Shown in pieces: positions 18,451 through 64,000 of a stretch of 64,000 nucleotides of DNA (positions within the stretch are counted from its first letter, which is position 1; the number at the start of each line of letters is the position of its first letter). Source of the DNA: Agelas oroides (taxonomy: Eukaryota > Porifera > Demospongiae > Agelasida > Agelasidae); contig OX422184.1 of NCBI GenBank assembly GCA_949130485.1, forward strand, positions 913,443 through 977,442, read 5' to 3'. The notes under the pieces are model-generated. The model did not search any database. It was not told where the DNA came from and was given only the letters and a program-made list of their open reading frames with translations. A program made the position numbers and the translations under genes.

Positions 18451-18617
18451 TTGGAATTACTCAAAGTTTCATGCCCAGACCCGACCTGCGAAGAGAGGGG
18501 TCTGGTGACATTCGGTTGATTCCTCGGGCTTCATTACAAAATTTATAGCTTACTGTATGTATAACTAATTTACGTGCCAAAAAAGTGCTGTGTCATCATG
18601 CTGAAGTAGCCAAGGAT

Positions 18618-18889
18618 TAGCCTTATTCCCAGGCCTCCCCCGTTTTTTTTTTTTGTTCTTCAGTTTGCATTCAGTATAATACACGGAAGCGGAAGAACGG
18701 CGAAAAACGGGGAAGGCCTGGGAACATCTATCACATGAATGACATCTGGTCCACCTCGCGTCCACCAGACGTCATCCATGTGATAGGTGTTCCCAGGCCT
18801 TCCCCGTTTTCACTGCTCTTCCGCCTCCGTGTATTATACTTAACGCAAACCGTAGAACAAAAAACGGGGGAGGCCTGGGAATGAGGCTA
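18618..18889. mobile_element. Composite TAGCCTT...GAGGCTA foldback with exact 9-bp TSD
   Basis: Two inverted half-elements, each with AGGCCTCCCCCGTTTTT and GTATAATACACGGAAGCG-like parts, flank a ~60-bp centre. The flanks are exact 9-bp duplications GCCAAGGAT (18609-18617 and 18890-18898), so the whole composite moved as one unit. It lies inside a larger inverted pair with CATGCCCAGACCC (~18468) and GGGTCTGGGCACGAGACTA (to 19042). Confidence 0.85.
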
Positions 18890-19069
18890 GCCAAGGATTT
18901 CTGGTGTTGCAACCACAGACTGTAACCTGAATTGGCGGACGGAAAAGTCTCCCCAGAAAGCAATCAAAGTTAATGAAGCCTGAGGAAACGGCCGAATATC
19001 ACCGGACCCTCTCCTCTCAGGTGGGGTCTGGGCACGAGACTATGCCTCAGTTGGCCATGCAGCGACTAG

Positions 19070-20101: not shown

Positions 20102-23100
20102 ATGGTGGATTGTTGGAGCTACCGCGTAGTGTGGCAGAGGAAGAGAAGGACCAGTAGTCGACTTCGACTCCTCCTCTATTTGCTTGTGTTGCCACTGCTG
20201 CATAAAGGCATGGTGAACATAACTGATGCAGTTGGCTTGCAGAGCAAAGGTATGTTTTGACAGTTGCTATACTGTACTGAGTGATTGGGACAGCATTACT
20301 CCCTTTATCTTGTAGTGTTCAGTAAGTTAGCCTCGTTCCCAGGTCCCACTTCAACTGCTAGTCTCGCAAGCCACACCCTTCGCAGTGGGGAAGGGTCTGG
20401 TCATGCTGCAACCATCGATTTGTCGCCACACCAGAAACTTGACGTGACCTATCAGATCCGCGCTCTTCGTAGATCACATCCGTTGTCATGGAGTAGCAAT
20501 TACGTCACAACGTGTTTAGCGGATGTCAGCATCTCATTGTCTAATCGCTATGTTTGATAATTGTGTTCCTCGGCAACTGGTTGCAGCGTGACCAGACCCT
20601 TCCTCTCTGTTGCTTGCGAGACTATTGAACTGCTTGGTCATAATTGGATTGGCACGTATGGTGGTTACTAGCCTCGTCCCCAGGCCCCACCCAAAAATCG
20701 GGAAAGGGGCCTGGGGTCACTTGCAAACTTTCCTGTATGTGCTGAGTCAGCATATTATGTAACGATTACGTGCCTTACTTGATCACGTGGTAGCCAGCTA
20801 CTGTTGACGATGGCATTACGGAGTAGATGAACAGATCTTGCTACGGAGCGACTACAGAAAAATCCTGTGAGGCAAAAGCAGTAGCCTAGCAAGCGTAACT
20901 ACGCTCTAAGTTTCTGAAATCCGAGGTTTATAAAAAGTGTGCTTGCCCCATTCCCATTTTCAAATGGTTTTGGAACGAGTCTACTACTTTCACGTGTCAA
21001 GAATTTAGTAATTGGTAATGGACGAACGTGATTCCTCTACTCCAAACGAAGACTGTTGACACAGCACATACGGGAATTTTTGCAAGTAACACCAGGCCCC
21101 ATTCCCAATTTTTGGGTGGGGCCTGGGGACGAGGCTAGGTGGTTACCAGGTTACTCCCCAGCATGCACACACAAAATACATAATAATTCCATATTGGTCT
21201 AATTATACTTCACTTATACTGCATTCATTCCTAAGTATAGCGTTACTGCTTCTATGATGCATCCTCCCACATGCATTCACTATGAGACCACAAAGTGGAA
21301 TGGAACCATTTGATACTCAGTTAACCATTGTATTTGACACTTTTTATACACTACATGTTAATGATCTGTGGACGTTTCTCACTATTTTGTCCAGGATGGT
21401 CAAGCCGTTCATCTGAATCAGAAAAGATGCGGAGAGTCTGGCAGAACTTTGTGCTACCGGTAAGTACGTACCTCCTAACTGCATTGTGTACCAAATACTT
21501 GTGTTCTTGCAAGAGCGCATAAGAACAGGCGGCTTGAGTAAGAGCGTGTAACTCCAATAGAAGCTCGTAGTCTGGTTAAAAATTATTGAACTGTACTGAA
21601 AATAGAACACCCGGTCAAATGCTTAGCAACAATGGCTTACGTCTCACAGCACGTGTTACTATTTTTAGTACTGGTGGTAAATTCCAACCAGTTTCAAATT
21701 TTACGGAGTTACATGCTCTTACTCTAGCCGCCCGTTCTATTAACCCATGCAGGAGGAGGCTTTGCCAGTCCAGCTGAGGGACCCTGTGCTTGCTAGGACA
21801 CACGAGAAGTACCGGATCAGGATCTCTTATGGATGTGGTGTCAAAGTGATCACTAAGGCGTGTGTTCTGGCTGTATTTGTGCTGCTACTGTTGTTGTCAG
21901 GAGATGTGGAACTGAATCCTGGGCCACCAAAACTTGGTATGAGTGAATTTTATATATTATCTTTTCAGACATATACTAGCTTCATTCTCAGCCTCTCCCA
22001 GCTTTCATAGCTTGCAGTATGGAAAGTGGGGAGCTTGTTAGAAAGTCACACGTGATATTGTGGCATGTCATCAAAACTACGAAATGTCGTGCATGTAAAG
22101 ACCGCAGAGAAGCACTCTTGAATTTGTTAATGTGAGATCTGTGTTAGTTTCTCTAGTTAAGAGAGAGTTTAAATGGCATTGATTTTTACTGTGGGTTGGT
22201 TCTGCCAGAGTGTAGTGCTACCTCGTACAAATTATCCACAACAGAGACAAAGTCCTATCTACACATCAGGTAACATTCTCCTTTGTTGTTGTGACTGACG
22301 TCTCACAGACATGGTCACAACTCAGGATAGTACTCTGGTAGCAGGTATCAGTTCTGATCATGTGGTTATGCACTTTCAGCCCCTGGTAGTAGTATGGATG
22401 AGTGAGGCTGCAAATACATTTGTACAAGCTGTTCTTCGACTCAGGAGATCTCGAATAAAGTAGTACCGTATAGCGGGAAATTTTCACTGGTCCAAATTTT
22501 CACGAAAATCCCGTTTCCCCTCCAGAAGAAATTTTCGCGGTTTTAATTTTTGCGGTTTTAATTTTCGCGTTTAGTGTGAGGTATTGACCACGCCCCTTTA
22601 TCGTCGCCAGGCTACAGAGGATGAAAGATCTCCTGTGGGAGAGGGTAGGAAGTTGTCTGCTGTTTTGAAATAGCGATACAGTGCCATCGTCAGATCGAGT
22701 GAGACTAGCGCACAAAACGCATGTGCGAAAATTTCCACAAGTTCAAATGTTCACGTAAAAGTTCACGTGTTCAAATTTTCGTTCTTATTTCGCGGTTCTT
22801 ATTTTTGCGTGTTGGTTGTGGGTCGCGAAAATCGCGAAAATTTGGACCTCGTGAAAATTTCCTGCTATACGGTAGTTCTCACGAGACTTGTAGTACAACA
22901 GAGTACGGCTTTTTATAAACTGCATGCACCTGCAAGGCTTCCCCATTGACTCCTGTACACTCGTGCGAGTTAAATGTATCACAATTCAATGTATTTATTG
23001 TCCCAATATTGTGTGCCAATCTGTACATCTGTATATCAAATATCATGCTAATACCGTAAAGCTACAATTGTATACATGTGAGAAATTTATGCGATTTTGG

Positions 23101-26100
23101 AAAATCTGGCCTCTTAACAAATTTATGCGATTTTTATTTATGCGTACCTCACGTAGAACAGCTGCGTTTGCTGTCTGTGTCACGCCTTGTTTCTTTGGCT
23201 GTTAGCAAGGAGGCCGTAGATTGGAAGTAACGATACAAATTGATGTTGTCCCAGCTCTATCACAAATTGTCCATAGGGGTTTATGTTGTAATAGCCAGAT
23301 CGACATATCAGTACTTATGTTGGAATAGCCAAACATATCAGTGTTGATAACTGTTCAATATTTCTGTAGATGTGACGAAACCACAACTTAAAGACCTTGT
23401 GAATATGTATATAAAAGACTGGTATGGACTTGGTCTTGTTCTGGGTCTCAGTGAACATGAACTGGACATCATTCGTCATGACTGCCGAGACAAGTACCAG
23501 GACTGTGAGCGGGAAATGTTCAAACTGTGGCTGCAGGCTGATTCTGATGCTAGTTACAAGAAACTCGCCAGTGCCCTACATGCGGTAGGAGATTGTTGGA
23601 ATACTGCCAGACTTATCAGAGAGCATGGTAAGCCATTGCATGTGCTCGGAATAAATACTATTATCCATTTGGGGTGAGCCCAAGATTAGTGTAAAGCTAT
23701 GCAAAGTCCATGACGTGCTGCATATACTGGAATTCAAACATGAACATCCTGTAATCTATAATATTCAAATATTATAGCTGGTGCTTGCTATGTTGTATGT
23801 GTGGCCAACAATGTTGATTCATGAGTTGTCTCACATAAGGACTATGCAAGACAGATAGGCCAAGATACTGATGTCCAGCTAGAGCTAGTTTGTAGGGAGA
23901 GTAGGTAAGAGTAGTCCTTGTGCTCGCCCCCACAATGTATGCATTCATCTATAGTATTATGATGTGATACTAACTAAAGGAGGTTTACTAACTAAAGTGA
24001 GTGATGGAGGATATTGTTTTGGACAAACTGTAGTACCTAGGTACACGTAATAGTTATAGCATAGGTTTGAGGGCTGTACTGGATATATTACCTGAGCCTG
24101 AAGAAGCCATGCTATAACTATTTTATCGCCTAGGAAATGCATCCCATTTCTAGGTAACTACACATTTGGGCAATAACAAGTCACATCACTATGGCAACAT
24201 TATTGAATTTCAAACTGGAGGCTCCTGCTCCTCTGTTGTGTTCAGTGGAGACTGTGGAGGCTGGCATACACATGTGAAAGTCTCTGAAATCTTGTACTAA
24301 CCAACTAATTAAGCAATTGTATGAGAAGGATTACTTGGGCTGGACTTGGATGCTCTTTTGCTGTTCATGCTATAACTATTCCAGTCAACAGTAGCCAAGT
24401 GCATGTTGAAGATACTGGTATGTCATTGCATATAGTTTTTTCTTTAACAACAGGCTTAAGTTTGGAGCTCCCAAAACCATTACCACCAGGCAACATAGCA
24501 CAGTATGCTGAACTTCTGAAAAGTACTTACAGAGACGTTGATATGTATTTGCTTGATTGTTGGCCCCCTATGGGAAGCAGTGAGTTCATAACCCCATCTT
24601 TTCAGTACCACAACCGGTATGGAAATAAACACAATATTGCCATTACACTGCAAGACATTTTCAAGTCAGAAACCTACATCAAGCAATGCTGTGCTTACGA
24701 TCGTTTTCAAGGTTGCAATGATCTTAGAGAGGTGCCAGACAAAGACGTCTTGGGAATTAGAGTTTTGTTGGATGGCAGTCCTGGCAGTGGGAAAACTGTA
24801 CTTTGTCACCACTACTGCAAGAGGTGGGCGGAAGGAAGTTTGTTGGAAGCGTACTTTCTGGTGGTTTACATTGCCCTACGTGACGTTGATGCTAGCTCTG
24901 CTTCTAGGATTGAGGACTTGCTAAGCTATGGGAAAGACTCTCTCAGGAGAAAAGTGGCTGAAGAATTGCATGCTACAAGTGGGGAAGGTGCACTGTTTAT
25001 TCTTGATGGATGGGATGAATTGCAGCATGAACTAAGACACAAACAATCCCTTGTTTGTAAAATCCTTCTCAGAAAGGTGCTCCCAAAGTGTTCAGTTTTG
25101 GTAACATCAAGACCTCATTCTTCAGCATGGATGAAGCAAAGTAAATTAGTGACAAGGCATCTGGTTATCACTGGCTTCACTGAAGGCCAGATTAAGGAAT
25201 GTGTTGCCAGTGAATTTTGTGAGAACCATTCTGAAGGTGATAAGTTAGTTAGCCTGCTGGAGTCTCGTCCGGATTTAGCTAAGCTCTGTAACATTCCTCT
25301 CAACCTTGCCATTCTTATGTACATGTACAAGGTCAGTCATCACACTCTTCCAAACACTCTGACCAAAATCTACCAAAAGTTTATTATCAATGCTCTGCAT
25401 TGTCACATGTCAAAATGTAGCTTGTCTACAGACGTTGTGGAATTTCATACAATAAATGAACTTCCAGGCCTTGAAAGAGAACTCTACGAAGCTATGCGCA
25501 AACTCTCATTTGATGGACTTTGCAATGATGAGCTTGTATTTTCCCAGCTGTGTCTGAAAAGGTATCACCCAGGTCTACCTGAGAATCTACTGGGACTTAT
25601 GACAGCAGCTAAGACCTTCACAGACACAGGAATTAAATCCAAGTATCAGTTTCTTCATGCATCAGTTCAAGAATTCTTAGCTGCTGAGGAACTATCTATC
25701 CAGGCTCCACATATTCAAGTTGATTTTCTCCGCCAACATCTTCATGAGGATCGATTTCATTTGATGATCATATTTTTCTGTGGTCAGGCTCACATTTCAC
25801 CTGAATTAGAGAGCATATTTATATATCCAGCCCCAATTCTGGGATCCTATTTCTTCTACCAACATTGGTATGAGGAACCTCACCACCAGACAAGAACCCT
25901 CCTGCTGTTAATGGAAATGGTATTGGAATCACAGAACAAAGAACTTTGCTTGGCACTTTCTATGAGCATGCACGACACGAGTCTTGATTTCACAGACTAC
26001 ATTCTGAGCAAACATGACTACTTCATATTAGCAAATTTTTTGTGCTTTGGAGGATGCAAATGGAAGACACTGGACCTGGAAAGGTGTAGATCTGAATATG

Positions 26101-27881
26101 ATGCATTAAACCAATTTTCTGAAATATTACGTAACTCTCCAAAGACACTGCAATTTGAAAAGTTGACGTTATCTCTGCTTAGTTATGATTCTGACAGTAT
26201 AAATCAATTGCTAAGACAACCACCATTTCAGTCTTTGAAAGCTCTGAAGTTGCAACTTCCATTTATTGATATTCAAAGTGGTCTTGTAAAAATGGGTTAT
26301 CGGTCCCAAGAAGTTTTTTGGGACATTTCAAATCTGAACTTACACCATCTTTGTGATCTTTCCTCCCTGACAATTGATGCAGTTCTTTCAGATGATGAAT
26401 ATTCTAAGGTACTACAACTTGTTCAGAAATTGAAATCTCTAACCTCCTTGCAACTACTCCCTCAAGGCAATGTTTGGGTCCAGGAGTTAGATTGGTCCCC
26501 GGATTCTGTGAACACCAAAGCTTTTGGCAACTGGTTAACCCACTGCAAGGTATTACAAATTAAGGGATTTGATCGTTCTATTAGACACTCAAGAAAATCA
26601 GAGTTTCTGTATAATATGAATCCGGGTTGCTTTCATAATGTTCAAAAGCTGCACTTAACTTGCTGTCGTCTGAATTCTGAACAGGCATACTGGCTTTTCA
26701 CCTACGTTCACAACAGCAGTATCACTGAACTTGATTTGAGTGGCAACTATAGTATGTTTCAGTCACCTGAAGCAGCTGAAGAAAATTCCAAGAGGTTCTT
26801 TCCTATTGAAGAACATTTACAGTTTAAAGAATTAAAGGTAAATCATATTGATGCTGCTGAAGCTTTGAAATCATTTCTACAGGCAACAAAAACACTGGTA
26901 ATTTTGAATCTGTCGCACTGTGGAATTGATGGCATCACTATGAATATCATTGCAAATGGAATTTCCCTCTGTAGCACACTTGCACAGTTTCATGTTGGAC
27001 AGAATAGGATTAGTGGGTCAGGTGTGTCTGCTTTGTGCTCTGCTTTGGCCTCTAGATACAAGCCAAATACCTTGCTACCAAATCAATCGCCCATGAAACT
27101 GGCACTGTTTTTACAATATTGTGGACTTAATAATGAGGATGCAACTGCAATTGCAGAACTGCTTCAAAAGAATACTCGTATTGCAGGGTTGGACCTGTCA
27201 CTCAATGATATGTCAATTTCAGGTGTTTCTGCCATCATGTCCTCTGTCTGTCCAGTAAAAACAATTGATCTCTCCTACAATAATCTTGGGGGTAGAGATA
27301 CACAGAAACTATCACAAGCCTTTGAGAGAGCACTGTCCACATCCAGTGAATTAGAACAACTCCTCATAAAATACACTCACCTGAAACCATCTGCTATGAG
27401 GGGTATAGTTTTGGGACTAGAAAGAAGCCCATCATTAACACATCTGAAAATCCATGAGCCTGATATTAATGCTTTGGTTCTTGTAGACCTACTTAATGCT
27501 GTTGCTAGCAACAGAATACTTAAGGAACTATGTGTTAATGTAAATGACCTTGAACTGAGTGTATTTGCTATGGTTGACCCAATTTGTAATATGCTCCAGA
27601 ACAATACAGTCTTGACCACCTTGAAGCTGGGTCGATACCACTACATGGACAACCAATGCCAAGATCTCTTAAAAATTTGTCAAGCATTAAGGCAAAATTT
27701 CACTTTGACAAAACTAACTCTGAAGTTTCTTCGGAAGATAGAGAGGTGGCCGGAGGCTGAGGGTGTAACTGATCTTGAAAAATGTGCATTGAAAGAGAGT
27801 GGTTCCGTTAATCTCGTACGTGCAAGAGAAAAGAAACCATATGTAAAAATCAATATTAAAATCCGTCTTAGAAATGTATAA
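20102..27881 (+). CDS. NLR innate receptor: leader with 2A motif, Death-like domain, NACHT, LRRs
   Basis: Five phase-matched exons: 20102-20249, 21395-21459, 21753-21936, 23370-23627 and 24454-27881. Together they total 4083 nt (1360 residues). All junctions are GT-AG, with strong donors CCG/GTAAGT and AAAG/GTATGT. Residues 1-~50 carry a hydrophobic stretch (LRLLLYLLVLPLL). Residues ~110-129 are a second hydrophobic stretch ending in SGDVELNPGP, a 2A-like motif. Residues ~133-218 form a Death-fold-like domain (GLGLVLGLSEHELDIIRHDC). The NACHT has Walker A GSPGSGKT at ~326-333, Walker B ALFILDGWDEL at ~398-408 and LVTSRPHS. LRRs fill roughly 750-1300. Such receptors sense microbial ligands and signal through Death-fold assembly. 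The two large exons are firm; the three short 5' exons rest on phasing and splice consensus. Confidence 0.85.
20359..20624. mobile_element. TAGTCTC...GAGACTA element, 266 bp, in the first NLR intron
   Basis: Termini TAGTCTCGCAAGCC and GGCTTGCGAGACTA-like (GTTGCTTGCGAGACTA), with subterminal AAGGGTCTGGTCATGCTGCA and TGCAGCGTGACCAGACCCTT. Flanks TTCAACTGC and TTGAACTGC (8 of 9 identical). It is non-coding. Confidence 0.8.
20669..21137. mobile_element. 469-bp TAGCCTC...GAGGCTA element with exact 9-bp TSD
   Basis: TAGCCTCGTCCCCAGGCCCC ... GGGGCCTGGGGACGAGGCTA, flanked by GGTGGTTAC on both sides (20660-20668 and 21138-21146). The interior has no long frame. A second, inverted copy lies at about 56690-57166. 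It is inside the first NLR intron. Confidence 0.9.
21510..21739. mobile_element. ~260-bp MITE, 7-bp TSD family, copy 3, 3' end eroded
   Basis: Starts CAAGAGCGCATAAGAACAGG and is recognisable to AGCCGCCCGTTCT at 21739, where the expected TATGCGCTCTTG end is replaced by ATTAACCCATGCAG. The acceptor of NLR exon 3 (AG at 21751-21752) lies 12 bp after this eroded end. Confidence 0.85.
21888..21926 (+). other. 2A-like ribosome-skipping motif in the NLR leader
   Basis: Codons for LLLLSGDVELNPGP. The D-V-E-x-N-P-G-P consensus of 2A peptides is complete, with predicted skipping between Gly (GGG 21921-21923) and Pro (CCA 21924-21926). It directly follows a hydrophobic run, so skipping would separate the leader from the receptor, while read-through would keep it attached. 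2A sequences at NLR N termini have been reported in sea urchin. Activity here is untested. Confidence 0.75.
22464..22874. mobile_element. ~410-bp inverted-repeat element (TACCGTATAGCGGGAAATTT)
   Basis: Starts TACCGTATAGCGGGAAATTT and ends AAATTTCCTGCTATACGGTA, with GCGAAAA/TTTTCGC-rich arms. It lies in the third NLR intron. Diverged relatives (ATAGCGGGAAACTTTCG) occur near 43088, 52526 and 55064. Confidence 0.8.
22875..23369 (+). other. NLR intron 3, remainder
   Basis: No further element defined. Two short ATTTATGCGATTTT repeats lie near 23086-23140. Confidence 0.4.
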
Positions 27882-32711: not shown

Positions 32712-32724
32712 GGTATAAGTTGCC

Positions 32725-33810
32725 ATGGCAACTAGCACTCACCACTCGACACACAAGCCTTCCTCCCCCCCCTCCTCCTTCAACTCAACCTCAAAGGTGG
32801 TTACGACATCATGGGGGCTAACTTTCCACCATCGCAGTCAGATCCCAGCCATTTATAAAGAGCCGTACATCATCAATGGATACCGAAAACCCAACTCCAC
32901 GGTGACAGAAAGCCTCAAGTATCTCTTTGTGAAGCACAACGATGTGGGCAACTTTTGGACCCACTTTATTCCACTCTGTGTTTGGTTATGGTGGCTTTAT
33001 CGTCTCTCCTTTCGTCTCGATTTGACCAATCCTTATTTCTACCCTCTGCTCTGCTTTTGGGCTGGTTCTTGCTCTTACGCTTTCTTCAGCAGCATTGCTC
33101 ATATGTTCTCCGTTGTCTCCTTCACTGTTCGCACTGTTTGCTTCATGCTTGACTACCTGGGGATCGCAATGTACGGATTAGGTTGTAGCTTGGTGATCTT
33201 TTTCTATGAACAGCCGATACAACACAATTGGTTTGAACAGAAATGGCTGGTGCTGTCGCTGCAAATGGTGTTTGCAATCAATGCAACTTTGGTTTGTTCT
33301 CTTTCACGGTTTTTCTGGAAGAACCAACGCTACACGATTCGAGCGTTAGCCTTTGTGATCCCTTACATTTTGATGATGACTCCATTTGTTCAGAGGGTGC
33401 ATGTTTGCGTGAAGACCGGGAACGAATGTGTCCCTGAGACGCTTTACCTGCATCTGTTGTGTGTCGTTGTCACACACGTGGTCGCTTTTTTCTTTGTGAC
33501 AAAAATTCCAGAGCGGTTTTCACCAGGCAGATTTGATATTATTGGACAGAGCCATCAGCTGTTTCATATTGCAGCTGTCATTTTGACCTCAATACAAATG
33601 TACATGTACCCAAAGGATGCTATTCTGAGAAGAGACGAACTATCACAGGTCAAAGACGCAGCTCCCGAATTTCACACTACCTTTTTACCCTATGTTGTTG
33701 TGCAAGTATCTGGGCTGTTGATTGTTGCTATGTTCTGGTGTCTTATCGTCAGGGGAGTTGTAGTTAGTAATAAACGGGATGTCGTCAAGGAGAGAAAGAA
33801 GCTGTACTAA
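32725..33810 (+). CDS. Class II PAQR, membrane progestin receptor-like
   Basis: A 361-codon coding region in one exon, starting 12 bp after an acceptor. PAQR landmarks appear in order: IPAIYKEPYIINGYRKP at ~40-56, HNDVGNFWTHFIPL at ~72-85, SSIAHMFSVVSFTVR with the conserved S-x3-H at ~122-126, DYLGIAMYG at ~143, and RFSPGRFDIIGQSHQLFHIA at ~268-288. About seven to eight hydrophobic helices follow the usual topology, ending with ~15 basic residues. The S-x3-H and H-x3-H residues are the zinc/ceramidase-like site of the family. The length and the C-terminal extra helix fit the PAQR5-9 (mPR) branch better than the AdipoR branch, but the exact member is not assigned. It likely acts in the plasma membrane in steroid or lipid signalling. 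Confidence 0.9.
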   Translation: MATSTHHSTHKPSSPPSSFNSTSKVVTTSWGLTFHHRSQIPAIYKEPYIINGYRKPNSTVTESLKYLFVKHNDVGNFWTHFIPLCVWLWWLYRLSFRLDLTNPYFYPLLCFWAGSCSYAFFSSIAHMFSVVSFTVRTVCFMLDYLGIAMYGLGCSLVIFFYEQPIQHNWFEQKWLVLSLQMVFAINATLVCSLSRFFWKNQRYTIRALAFVIPYILMMTPFVQRVHVCVKTGNECVPETLYLHLLCVVVTHVVAFFFVTKIPERFSPGRFDIIGQSHQLFHIAAVILTSIQMYMYPKDAILRRDELSQVKDAAPEFHTTFLPYVVVQVSGLLIVAMFWCLIVRGVVVSNKRDVVKERKKLY

Positions 33811-34735: not shown

Positions 34736-36061
34736 TCACCCACTCAGGGGGCTGAAATTTAGCCTAACACGCTCCCCCTCACTCAACATGGCTACGACAG
34801 GGTAAAACCCTCCCTTAGGAACAGTACATTCAGTTTCCCCGACCTTCTCTCCGTTCTTTGTGAAGTAGACTATGCAAGTTCTACCACTGTCTTCGTCATG
34901 TTTATCAGTGTTTGGTTTATTAACACTCTTCAGTCTTCTCGGCAGACGAAATCCGTGACGCCCTAAATAGAGGTCATCAAGTAAATAATCGTCTTCGTCC
35001 TCATCGTAATAATCCTCAAAACAGTCCTCGTCACTTTCTTCATAACCGTAGAGTTCTTCGAGATCTGGTGTATAGTCAAATTCAGAACCAGAATCAGACC
35101 CTGCGGCACCACCACCGTCATCAGTATCGGAACTGGGAAGGAACTTAATTCCACAGCCCATTGTATCCCCTTCGGTACAAGTCGGCCCGAACGGCTCCCC
35201 GTGGCCTTTCTCTTTGTACAAGTGTCCATTATCAGCATGGTAACCCACCGAACCTTTATTCCAACCAGGATGTCTGTGTAGCGGATATGTCGTCTTGGCT
35301 AGACCAATTGCCAGCCACCCTTCTTTCCCAGCACTCAGAATTTCCATTTCAAAATAGTGTAATGTACGATTGAGTTGAAATTTTGACTGTGCAATTCCAA
35401 CATCTTGTCTATCGAGACCTTCTCCTGCATACTCCAGTGTCTTTCCATCGTCCAAGTATCTTACTCCGTTTGAGCGAAGCCAGACGTTTGAAGGTGAGCA
35501 ATCTAATTCCATTGGATCTTGAATACCATCTGGGACCTTTCTCCAGTGTCCCAAGTATCGTACCTTCTCTCCACGACTGTGCATTCCAATTAGAGGATAT
35601 AGGCCATAAAGTGGTCGCTTCATTCGCGCAGTTTCTCCGACCTGTTTGCCGTTCTTTGTGAAGAACACACTCACGTAGCCATACCCACAGTCAGTATCAA
35701 AATCAACACCACAGCCCATGCGATCTCCTTCAGTGCAGGTTGGTCCAAATGCCTTCCCATATCCGTCTTGGTGAAACAAGCGTCCATCATCGGCATGATA
35801 GCCAATACCATTTCGGTTCCACCCAGGCATCCTATCCAAGGGGTAACTCTGTTCTCCGACACCTACGCCCAGAGCACACTTCTGCCCGCGCGACAATATC
35901 TCATATTCGTAGTAGTTCAGCATGGGCGACATCGGTTCTAAGATCTTGACCACGCCCACACTACCTCCCTCCGCTTTGAACTTGAAAACATCTCCCTCAA
36001 TTTCCGCGTTTCTTCCACAGTAATGGCGCCCCTTGGTGTGCAACTTGACTCCCTGCTCCAT
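34736..36061 (-). CDS. SPRYD3: SPRY domain-containing protein 3
   Basis: 441 codons from M 36061, no introns in the coding part; human SPRYD3 is 442. There are two SPRY domains. The first covers ~20-180 (YYEYEILSRG, GYHADDGRLF, GDRMGCGVDFD, VFFTKNGKQVGE, LYPLIGMHSRGEKVR). The second covers ~220-440 (HYFEMEILSAG, VGYHADNGHLY, FGPTCTEGDTMGCGI). Like the vertebrate protein, the second SPRY is split by a long acidic insertion (ESDEDCFEDYYDEDEDD) before FTKNGEKVGE and ends in GGFYPVVAMLSEGERVR...PLSG. The frame stays open upstream of 36061 to about 36160 without a better methionine, so an upstream spliced exon is possible. SPRY domains bind proteins; the function of SPRYD3 is poorly known. Confidence 0.9.
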   Translation of the reverse strand: MEQGVKLHTKGRHYCGRNAEIEGDVFKFKAEGGSVGVVKILEPMSPMLNYYEYEILSRGQKCALGVGVGEQSYPLDRMPGWNRNGIGYHADDGRLFHQDGYGKAFGPTCTEGDRMGCGVDFDTDCGYGYVSVFFTKNGKQVGETARMKRPLYGLYPLIGMHSRGEKVRYLGHWRKVPDGIQDPMELDCSPSNVWLRSNGVRYLDDGKTLEYAGEGLDRQDVGIAQSKFQLNRTLHYFEMEILSAGKEGWLAIGLAKTTYPLHRHPGWNKGSVGYHADNGHLYKEKGHGEPFGPTCTEGDTMGCGIKFLPSSDTDDGGGAAGSDSGSEFDYTPDLEELYGYEESDEDCFEDYYDEDEDDYLLDDLYLGRHGFRLPRRLKSVNKPNTDKHDEDSGRTCIVYFTKNGEKVGETECTVPKGGFYPVVAMLSEGERVRLNFSPLSG

Positions 36062-36850
36062 CGCACGACACTGGGAGAAGGGGTCGTTTTCACAGCTTTG
36101 GCTACAAAAGTCCGACAGAAATCCGATCCGGAGGGGGATGGAAATTGCCCAAGGGGTCAATTATTGGGAATCCCCTAATCAAACGTTATCACCAACTAAC
36201 GTTAAAATCTGATTGGTTAGTTTTACCTGGGAAGAAAGAAAAAGGCGCGAAGTTTTTTTGCTTAGTTGTGCAAGTTAGTGCGTGTTTCTAGGGACAGCGT
36301 TGTCAGCATTAGAGTTATGCAGGTATGATCTATGTAGACTGTTGCGATCCACGCCGACCGTAGCAATCTGTCATTGTGAAGTTAGCATGCTAGGGTATCT
36401 AGTTAACACGGCTGTTGTTTGTGAATCCTATGAAGTGGTAAGAGTTCTAATTAAAGAGCAAGCTAGTTGTTCTGTCTGCACTACTGATAAGGAGAGCTGT
36501 TACTGTGAAACTGAAGCAAGTTTGCTGTTGTTTGAATGATTGGGGCCTTATAGTCTTGTGTAGCCAGACTCTCGCTGGGAAGTGTCTGGCTATGTGCATA
36601 GTTGTCATATAACCTTCGGACTGAAGGCTATATATCATCTATGCTACATGTGACTACAAAATATGTTGTACGTTCATGAATTCATGGTTATGAGGTAGAC
36701 AAGGGTTGGTCACTCCCACAAGCACTGTACATACATGGACTTGGTGTCCCTTAACCTCATTCCCAGGTTCTTGTGTGTAGGGTGAAGCTAGATGACAAAC
36801 GGGTCCCAATATACCAACAGATTGTGCTTAGAACGTTGAGGGGTCCAAAT
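36062..36850. other. 5' flank of SPRYD3
   Basis: Divergent interval with PKMYT1 about 1.9 kb away. A short plus-strand frame at 36282-36539 has no recognisable features. A small TAGCCAGACTCTCGC...GTCTGGCTA hairpin lies at about 36559-36594. Confidence 0.4.

Positions 36851-37983: not shown

Positions 37984-64000
<26,017 letters not shown>

What the first reader, a model, noticed from the sequence alone, without database searches (positions are those of the whole stretch)
20102..21936. NLR receptor with a 2A ribosome-skipping motif at the end of its leader
Three short exons upstream of the Death/NACHT/LRR exons join in phase and encode two hydrophobic stretches, the second ending in GDVELNPGP, a complete 2A consensus. 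Skipping would release the receptor starting at Pro129 in the cytosol and leave a ~128-residue leader. Failure to skip would keep the receptor attached to a signal-like segment. This would let one mRNA send the same immune receptor to two compartments. N-terminal 2A motifs on NLRs are reported in sea urchin; one in this lineage would imply either an old feature or repeated acquisition, possibly from LINEs, which also carry 2A motifs.
Basis: partly seen in the sequence, partly recalled or inferred. Interest (0 to 1): 0.88.

Follow-up and report, generated by a model that had tools for sequence, protein, structure and literature searches.

The report
Sponge immune receptors with 2A leaders
In what is probably a sponge genome, many immune-type genes, this receptor among them, begin with a membrane-like leader that ends in a motif known to make ribosomes skip a peptide bond, so one message could yield both a free and a membrane-tethered receptor; the idea resembles one described for sea urchin receptors and has not been tested here.

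Summary
Five GT-AG exons (20102-27881) join into a 1360-residue Death-NACHT-LRR receptor whose leader has two hydrophobic segments and ends LLLLSG-DVELNPGP, skip point Gly128/Pro129.

It is not a lone case. The 259-Mb genome holds 285 D(V/I/M)ExNPGP sites; the reversed pattern holds none. 169 end three leader families, 5 more precede a Death domain, 54 lie in PHD-bearing mobile elements, and 57 are unassigned, the window gene among them. Leaders searched for without their 2A carry it in 158 of 162, and the two families measured are constrained in frame only. Of 81 sites read, 36 have a Death domain downstream on the same strand, none upstream or antisense.

Best reading: a StopGo leader that works like the sea urchin NLR leaders but is longer, has two segments in the five-exon model, and also heads Death-ankyrin and Death-unknown-Death loci. 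Skipping, expression and localisation were not tested. LINE ancestry of the leader is not supported. A Helitron-like element with 2A was also found.

The parts
20102..20249 (+). Exon 1: start codon, basic N terminus and first hydrophobic segment (about residues 21-40)
   Evidence: Open frame, GT donor, hydropathy; start context GGGAGATGG. No homologue found; model by consensus only.
21395..21459 (+). Exon 2: polar linker, residues about 50-71
   Evidence: AG/GT borders and frame
21753..21936 (+). Exon 3: second hydrophobic segment, 2A, phase-1 end
   Evidence: relatives found only through the hydrophobic stretch and 2A
21840..21896 (+). Second hydrophobic segment, residues 101-119
   Evidence: Kyte-Doolittle windows
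21903..21926 (+). 2A/StopGo core DVELNPGP; predicted skip between Gly128 and Pro129 (21923/21924)
   Evidence: Direct reading of sequence; genome site C2:935345
23370..23627 (+). Exon 4: Death domain (residues 138-206)
   Evidence: Pfam PF00531 8.6e-8
24454..27881 (+). Exon 5: NACHT (about 24762-25217) and LRR, stop codon
   Evidence: Pfam PF05729 1.5e-20, LRR_1 2.9e-5; NACHT hit at the same place in the genome search
21747..21749 (+). Alternative ATG overlapping the exon 3 acceptor (rival start, weak context)

Best explanation
This is an NLR-type receptor whose N-terminal leader is a translated StopGo (2A) module. Proposed steps. (1) Shown by sequence: the leader has a first hydrophobic segment near residues 21-40, a second at 101-119, then the 2A core. 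(2) Inferred: the first segment leaves the ribosome long before the 2A is read, so it can dock the ribosome at the ER. (3) Inferred from the motif class: at NPG/P most ribosomes release the 128-residue leader and continue, making the Death-NACHT-LRR receptor free in the cytosol from Pro129. (4) Inferred: ribosomes that do not skip leave the receptor tethered to the two-segment leader, most likely anchored with Death-NACHT-LRR facing the cytosol. Leaders of the same layout head other Death-domain loci here (NLR, Death-ankyrin, Death-unknown-Death), so I read it as a standard front module of a Death-domain immune repertoire.
For: Motif and architecture. Leaders searched for without the 2A still end in it: family A 63 of 65 full-length places, B 61 of 63 places, C8 34 of 34 full-length places. 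In-frame pN/pS is 0.43 (A, 33 copies) and 0.45 (B, 11 copies), against 0.94-1.12 in the shifted frames (copies were required to have the 2A and an open frame). Death domain downstream on the same strand in 36 of 81 read sites, 0 upstream or antisense (the local Death model was seeded with six of these sites plus the window, so 30 of the 36 are independent of the seed). L086 and L087 carry leader, 2A and Death in one open frame, with Death starting 27 bases after the start of the core, so no splicing is assumed. NACHT: 12 of 105 listed have a same-strand 2A within 10 kb upstream, 1 downstream, 0 antisense. Exactly two hydrophobic segments in 57 of 71 non-PHD sites. Hexapeptide before the core ends in G in 80 of 81. 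Published: a sea urchin NLR 2A leader skipped about 80% in vitro and sent the fused form to the Golgi when skipping was abolished (PMC4981915); ER-docked chains can lower skipping (PMC2978324, passages including the abstract).
Against: No RNA, protein or reporter data. Exons 1-2 of this gene have no homologue, and the ATG at 21747 would give a one-segment leader. The window leader does not align to the other leader groups beyond the 2A region, so constraint on families A and B does not speak directly for this gene. Most listed NACHT genes (93 of 105) have no exact 2A within 10 kb upstream. The Pfam Death score on the one-frame L087 is below its cut-off (19.9 against 22.6), as is that on a piece of L033. 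The C8-type Death next to the leader in L041 has no Pfam hit and was itself a seed of the local model; only a later Death in L041 is over the cut-off. The loop between the two segments is net basic (read by eye), which does not favour a lumenal loop. No signal-peptide or topology predictor was available. A search for a family-A leader on full-length proteins found nothing at E up to 10 among 1826 candidates.
Confidence: 0.6

Rival explanations
1. The 2A serves simply to make two proteins: skipping is nearly complete, the leader is a small membrane protein with its own job, and the receptor is always cytosolic. No dual targeting.
For: Family A leaders are most constrained at their N terminus outside the 2A (WRARIGL region, pN/pS 0.16), which suggests a leader function. 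The four upstream motif classes tested in PMC12846837, an L-rich one among them, gave about 93 to 100% in vitro (section 10).
Against: Two hydrophobic segments placed to anchor a fused product; published ER-dependent inhibition of skipping (PMC2978324); the sea urchin leader skipped only about 80% (PMC4981915).
Confidence: 0.3
2. In this gene the leader is vestigial: the functional transcript starts at the Death exon or another first exon, and exons 1-3 are ab initio artefacts.
For: No homologue for exons 1-2; exon 3 similarity is limited to the hydrophobic stretch and 2A; the window leader aligns to no other group.
Against: All borders are consensus and in frame; the 2A core and its LLLLSG hexapeptide are intact; a phase-1 exon end just after the 2A recurs at other loci.
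Confidence: 0.15
3. The 2A exon was captured from a LINE or Helitron, which carry 2A plus PHD in this genome.
For: 54 of 285 sites are PHD-type; L074 is a LINE and L073 a Helitron-like element with N-terminal 2A.
Against: No profile alignment between the four PHD-type leaders compared and any cellular leader group (last 14 residues removed). Cellular exons usually end in a phase-1 intron just after the 2A, while the mobile elements read straight into PHD. The 2A itself is too short to trace.
Confidence: 0.15

Closest known systems
Sea urchin (Strongylocentrotus purpuratus) NLR N-terminal 2A signal sequences, SpNLR2A (PMC4981915)
   Same: 2A-like motif at or near the N terminus of Death-NACHT-LRR receptors, hydrophobic lead-in, cytosolic and ER-directed products; also widespread there (that paper gives about 35%, 85 of 241 NLRs)
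   Different: The tabulated sea urchin leaders (14) are 26 residues. The window leader has 128 residues and two hydrophobic segments in the five-exon model (about 60 and one in the alternative), and leaders here also head Death-ankyrin and Death-unknown-Death loci
Viral StopGo/2A elements, L-rich upstream class (PMC12846837)
   Same: Core D(V/I)ExNPGP and LLLLSG hexapeptide
   Different: Immune-type gene instead of a viral polyprotein; the upstream product is a hydrophobic leader
2A in APE-type non-LTR retrotransposons (Odon 2013, known from citations only; text not held)
   Same: 2A in the ORF; a LINE of this genome has one near its N terminus (L074)
   Different: The window gene model has no endonuclease, RT or PHD match; leaders do not align
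Sponge NLRs with transmembrane segments (Dysidea avara, PMC12909245; passages read)
   Same: NLRs with membrane segments in a sponge; Death-type NLRs
   Different: The terms 2A-like, NPGP and ribosom do not occur in its main text; a 2A leader may explain such segments (inference)

Membership tests
StopGo/2A element | Core octapeptide (D/G/C/N)(V/I)ExNPGP | tested here: met
   DVELNPGP at 21903-21926; definition from PMC12846837
StopGo/2A element | Permissive upstream hexapeptide | tested here: met
   LLLLSG, named as a class in PMC12846837
StopGo/2A element | Actual bond skipping during translation | not testable with these tools
   Needs a reporter assay
SpNLR2A-type dual-targeting leader | 2A at the N-terminal end of a Death-NACHT-LRR protein | tested here: met
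   Gene model, Pfam
SpNLR2A-type dual-targeting leader | Short (26 aa) leader | tested here: not met
   128 residues in the five-exon model, about 60 in the alternative; so it is filed as working like this kind, not as a member
SpNLR2A-type dual-targeting leader | Leader works as a signal sequence when not skipped | not testable with these tools
   Only hydropathy available
NLR (Death-NACHT-LRR) | Death, NACHT and LRR domains in order | tested here: met
   Pfam over cut-off for Death, NACHT, LRR_1; LRR match is short
LINE-derived 2A | Leader homologous to LINE leader | tested here: not met
   hhalign E 0.53 for window against a set of four PHD-type leaders

The most novel reading that the evidence does not exclude
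A Death-domain immune repertoire in this animal (about 170 leader exons in several mostly unalignable families, heading NLR, Death-ankyrin and Death-unknown-Death genes) runs through a StopGo switch coupled to the ER. The first segment docks the ribosome, and the state of the translocon or translation stress sets how much receptor is freed into the cytosol and how much stays membrane-anchored, so disturbance of translation or the ER would itself shift receptor pools.
Probability: 0.25. Interest if true: 0.92.

Novelty: new variant of a known kind. Interest (0 to 1): 0.8.

Why it matters
StopGo motifs are described as very rare in cellular genes (PMC12846837, opening text), with NLRs as the cited cellular case (PMC11512398, passages read; data from sea urchin, PMC4981915, where 85 of 241 NLRs are said to have one). 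Here one probable sponge genome holds 169 sites in three leader families, and the members of those families that were read often head Death-domain exons. The motif is kept in 158 of 162 leaders found without using it. That makes a role of 2A in animal immunity directly testable, gives many natural leader-2A pairs for structure-function work, and offers an explanation for membrane segments reported in sponge NLRs. Unalignable leaders with the same layout raise the question of repeated origin against fast divergence.

Tried and rejected
Rejected: LINE origin of the leader, on the leaders compared. Rejected: chance motif (reversed control 0). Set aside: 57 of 285 sites could not be assigned, the window's own site among them. 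Not read: the two full-length A leaders without an exact 2A, and one of the two such B leaders.

Led nowhere: a search for a family-A leader on full-length database proteins. Organism naming: of 12 NLR hits the single named one is from Amphimedon, so 'sponge' is probable, not proven. A genome-wide Death count (PF00531) did not complete. No paper on 2A in sponge NLRs or Helitrons appeared in the listings; several of those listings are of unrelated papers, most listed papers were not opened, and the library holds open-licence PMC papers only, so absence from print is not shown.

Biases. Read loci were taken by pattern order, by similarity to the window exon or to leader A, or picked by me as group representatives, so 36 of 81 is not a random rate. 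The local Death model was seeded with six read loci and the window, the PHD model with six read loci. Copies used for pN/pS had to match the 2A pattern, so the low value for the core is biased. Leader starts are the first in-frame Met in the held frame, not verified; two loci are cut at their edge. The splice rule is crude: of 62 distinct contexts 48 phase 1, 5 other phase, 9 no donor found, two mobile elements included. One search scored 105 of 314 NACHT candidates and one search scored 150 of 194 PHD candidates.

Full report
Observation. The window holds a five-exon gene model on the + strand (20102-27881). All introns are GT-AG, the frame is open throughout and the product has 1360 residues. 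Pfam places Death at 138-206, NACHT at 322-473 and a short leucine-rich repeat match further on. The leader has hydrophobic segments at 24-40 and 98-126 and ends LLLLSG-DVELNPGP, so skipping would release the receptor at Pro129. Exons 1 and 2 have no homologue, and an ATG at 21747 gives a simpler, one-segment alternative that keeps the 2A.

It is not alone. The pattern for D(V/I/M)ExNPGP matches 285 places in the 259.3-Mb genome: 80, 58, 66 and 81, with no match to the reversed pattern in any of these searches. Random expectation by my own arithmetic is about 0.5.

What the sites are. Three leader families were searched without their 2A. Family A (MGIDLATWRARIGL...) gave 84 places, 65 full-length, 63 of these with 2A; counting fragments, 74 of 84. 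Family B gave 63 places, 61 with 2A; one of the two misses (L029) has the near-match DLETNPGP, the other was not read. The C8 family gave 38 places, 34 full-length, all 34 with 2A; counting fragments, 36 of 38. Together that is 158 of 162. A PHD query from a LINE gave 108 places (150 of 194 candidates scored), 52 with an exact 2A just upstream. Assigning all 285 sites: 72 A, 61 B, 36 C8, 5 other leaders with a Death domain, 54 PHD-type mobile elements, 57 unassigned including the window gene.

What follows the 2A. Of 81 sites read, 36 have a Death domain downstream on the same strand within the DNA held, 10 are PHD-type and 35 show neither, most with about 1.5 kb or less held; no Death hit lay upstream or antisense. 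The Death model was seeded with six of these sites plus the window, so 30 of the 36 are independent of the seed. By family, A 22 of 36, B 8 of 18, C8 1 of 3; the one C8 case (L041) is a seed whose first Death has no Pfam hit, though a later Death in that locus is over the cut-off. L086 and L087 carry leader, 2A and Death in one open frame of 291 and 263 codons. L033 has an open frame of 322 codons, part of which may be intron in its relatives. Pfam Death on L087 (E 0.0008) and on the L033 piece (E 0.0031) is below the curated cut-off. L075 and L076 have leader, Death and NACHT exons in order. L040 has a Death exon followed by ankyrin repeats. L039 has a Death exon, a region without Pfam match and a second Death. 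L042 has ankyrin repeats but no Death found. That these exons are joined in one message is inferred from order and strand. Among 105 NACHT places scored of 314 candidates, 12 have a same-strand 2A within 10 kb upstream, 1 downstream and 0 antisense; at 20 kb 20, 4 and 0. So a minority of these NACHT genes have a nearby exact 2A.

Selection. In-frame pN/pS is 0.43 for 33 family A leaders without the core and 0.45 for 11 family B leaders, against 1.01 and 0.94, and 0.95 and 1.12, in the two shifted frames. Copies were required to have the 2A in an open frame. I read this as leaders that are translated and constrained. In family A the first 25 columns (WRARIGL region) give 0.16; the core gives 0.13, a biased value (34 copies). 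Leader-A relatives are abundant in public metagenome proteins: 500 at E up to 0.001, best 120 listed, of which 118 have the exact core; the other two read NVETNPGP and NPGT. That query contained the 2A.

Shared layout, unrelated leaders. Exactly two hydrophobic segments occur in 57 of 71 non-PHD sites and three in 3 more; the hexapeptide before the core ends in G in 80 of 81. The C10 NLR leader (L075) is short, 52 residues with one segment in the same call. In cellular loci the exon usually ends in phase 1 a few codons after the 2A: 48 of 62 contexts by a crude rule. Profile comparison joins A, its C3 copy, the MGID(V) set and, weakly, C8 through the WRARIG motif; B, the C3 NLR set, the window leader and the PHD-type set align to nothing (small sets). 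Either leaders diverge fast or the layout arose more than once.

Mechanism. Shown: sequence architecture, conservation, association with Death domains. Inferred: skipping at Gly128/Pro129, from the motif class (PMC12846837, sections 9 and 10 read) and from a sea urchin leader, which skipped about 80% in vitro and sent the fused form to the Golgi when skipping was abolished (PMC4981915: abstract, passages, Results part 1 of 2, Discussion). Inferred: the first segment emerges well before the 2A, so the ribosome may be ER-docked when the 2A is read, and docked chains can reduce skipping (PMC2978324, passages including the abstract). The unskipped form would then be a membrane-anchored receptor, probably facing the cytosol, rather than a secreted one. 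The net basic loop between the segments speaks against a lumenal loop.

Organism. No name is given. Of 12 NLR relatives found, the one with a name is from the sponge Amphimedon queenslandica, so a sponge is likely.

Novelty. N-terminal 2A on NLRs is known from sea urchin, where 85 of 241 NLRs are said to have one (PMC4981915). In the library searched I found no report for sponge NLRs or for Helitrons; most listed papers were not opened, the sponge lncRNA paper among them. I rate it a new variant of a known kind: probable new lineage, long two-segment leaders, several Death-domain architectures.

Noticed in passing
L073 207-5000 (genome C1:10533358-10538357): A Helitron-like open frame (PHD, DUF6570, Helitron_like_N, PIF1) starts with a hydrophobic stretch and 2A (GDIETNPGP); further places share that 2A and a PHD match. 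No paper in the library holds both 'Helitron' and '2A-like'.
   Followed up: partly
L074 (genome C7:4321063-4325562, - strand): LINE with N-terminal signal-like segment, 2A and PHD, followed by an endonuclease and RT frame. Its PHD resembles that of the Helitron-like element.
   Followed up: partly
L039 179-2404 (-) and L041 4667-5887 (+): Death-domain proteins with a region that has no Pfam match and looks repeated in L039; weak TRADD-like_N hit in L041 (0.027).
   Followed up: no
window 44479-45596, 45594-47953, 61226-62437: Large tandem arrays: 50-base unit x22, 33-base x73, 87-base x14.
   Followed up: no
window 32719-33807 (+) and 34739-36160 (-): HlyIII-type membrane protein and SPRY-domain protein frames near the receptor.
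   Followed up: no
window about 18600-18900: Inverted repeat with CCCAGGCCTCCCCCG-like ends, seen by eye; looks like a small transposable element.
   Followed up: no
L043-L072, leader N terminus: WRARIGL motif shared by leader families A, MGID(V) and C8 and the most constrained part of family A outside the core; function unknown.
   Followed up: partly
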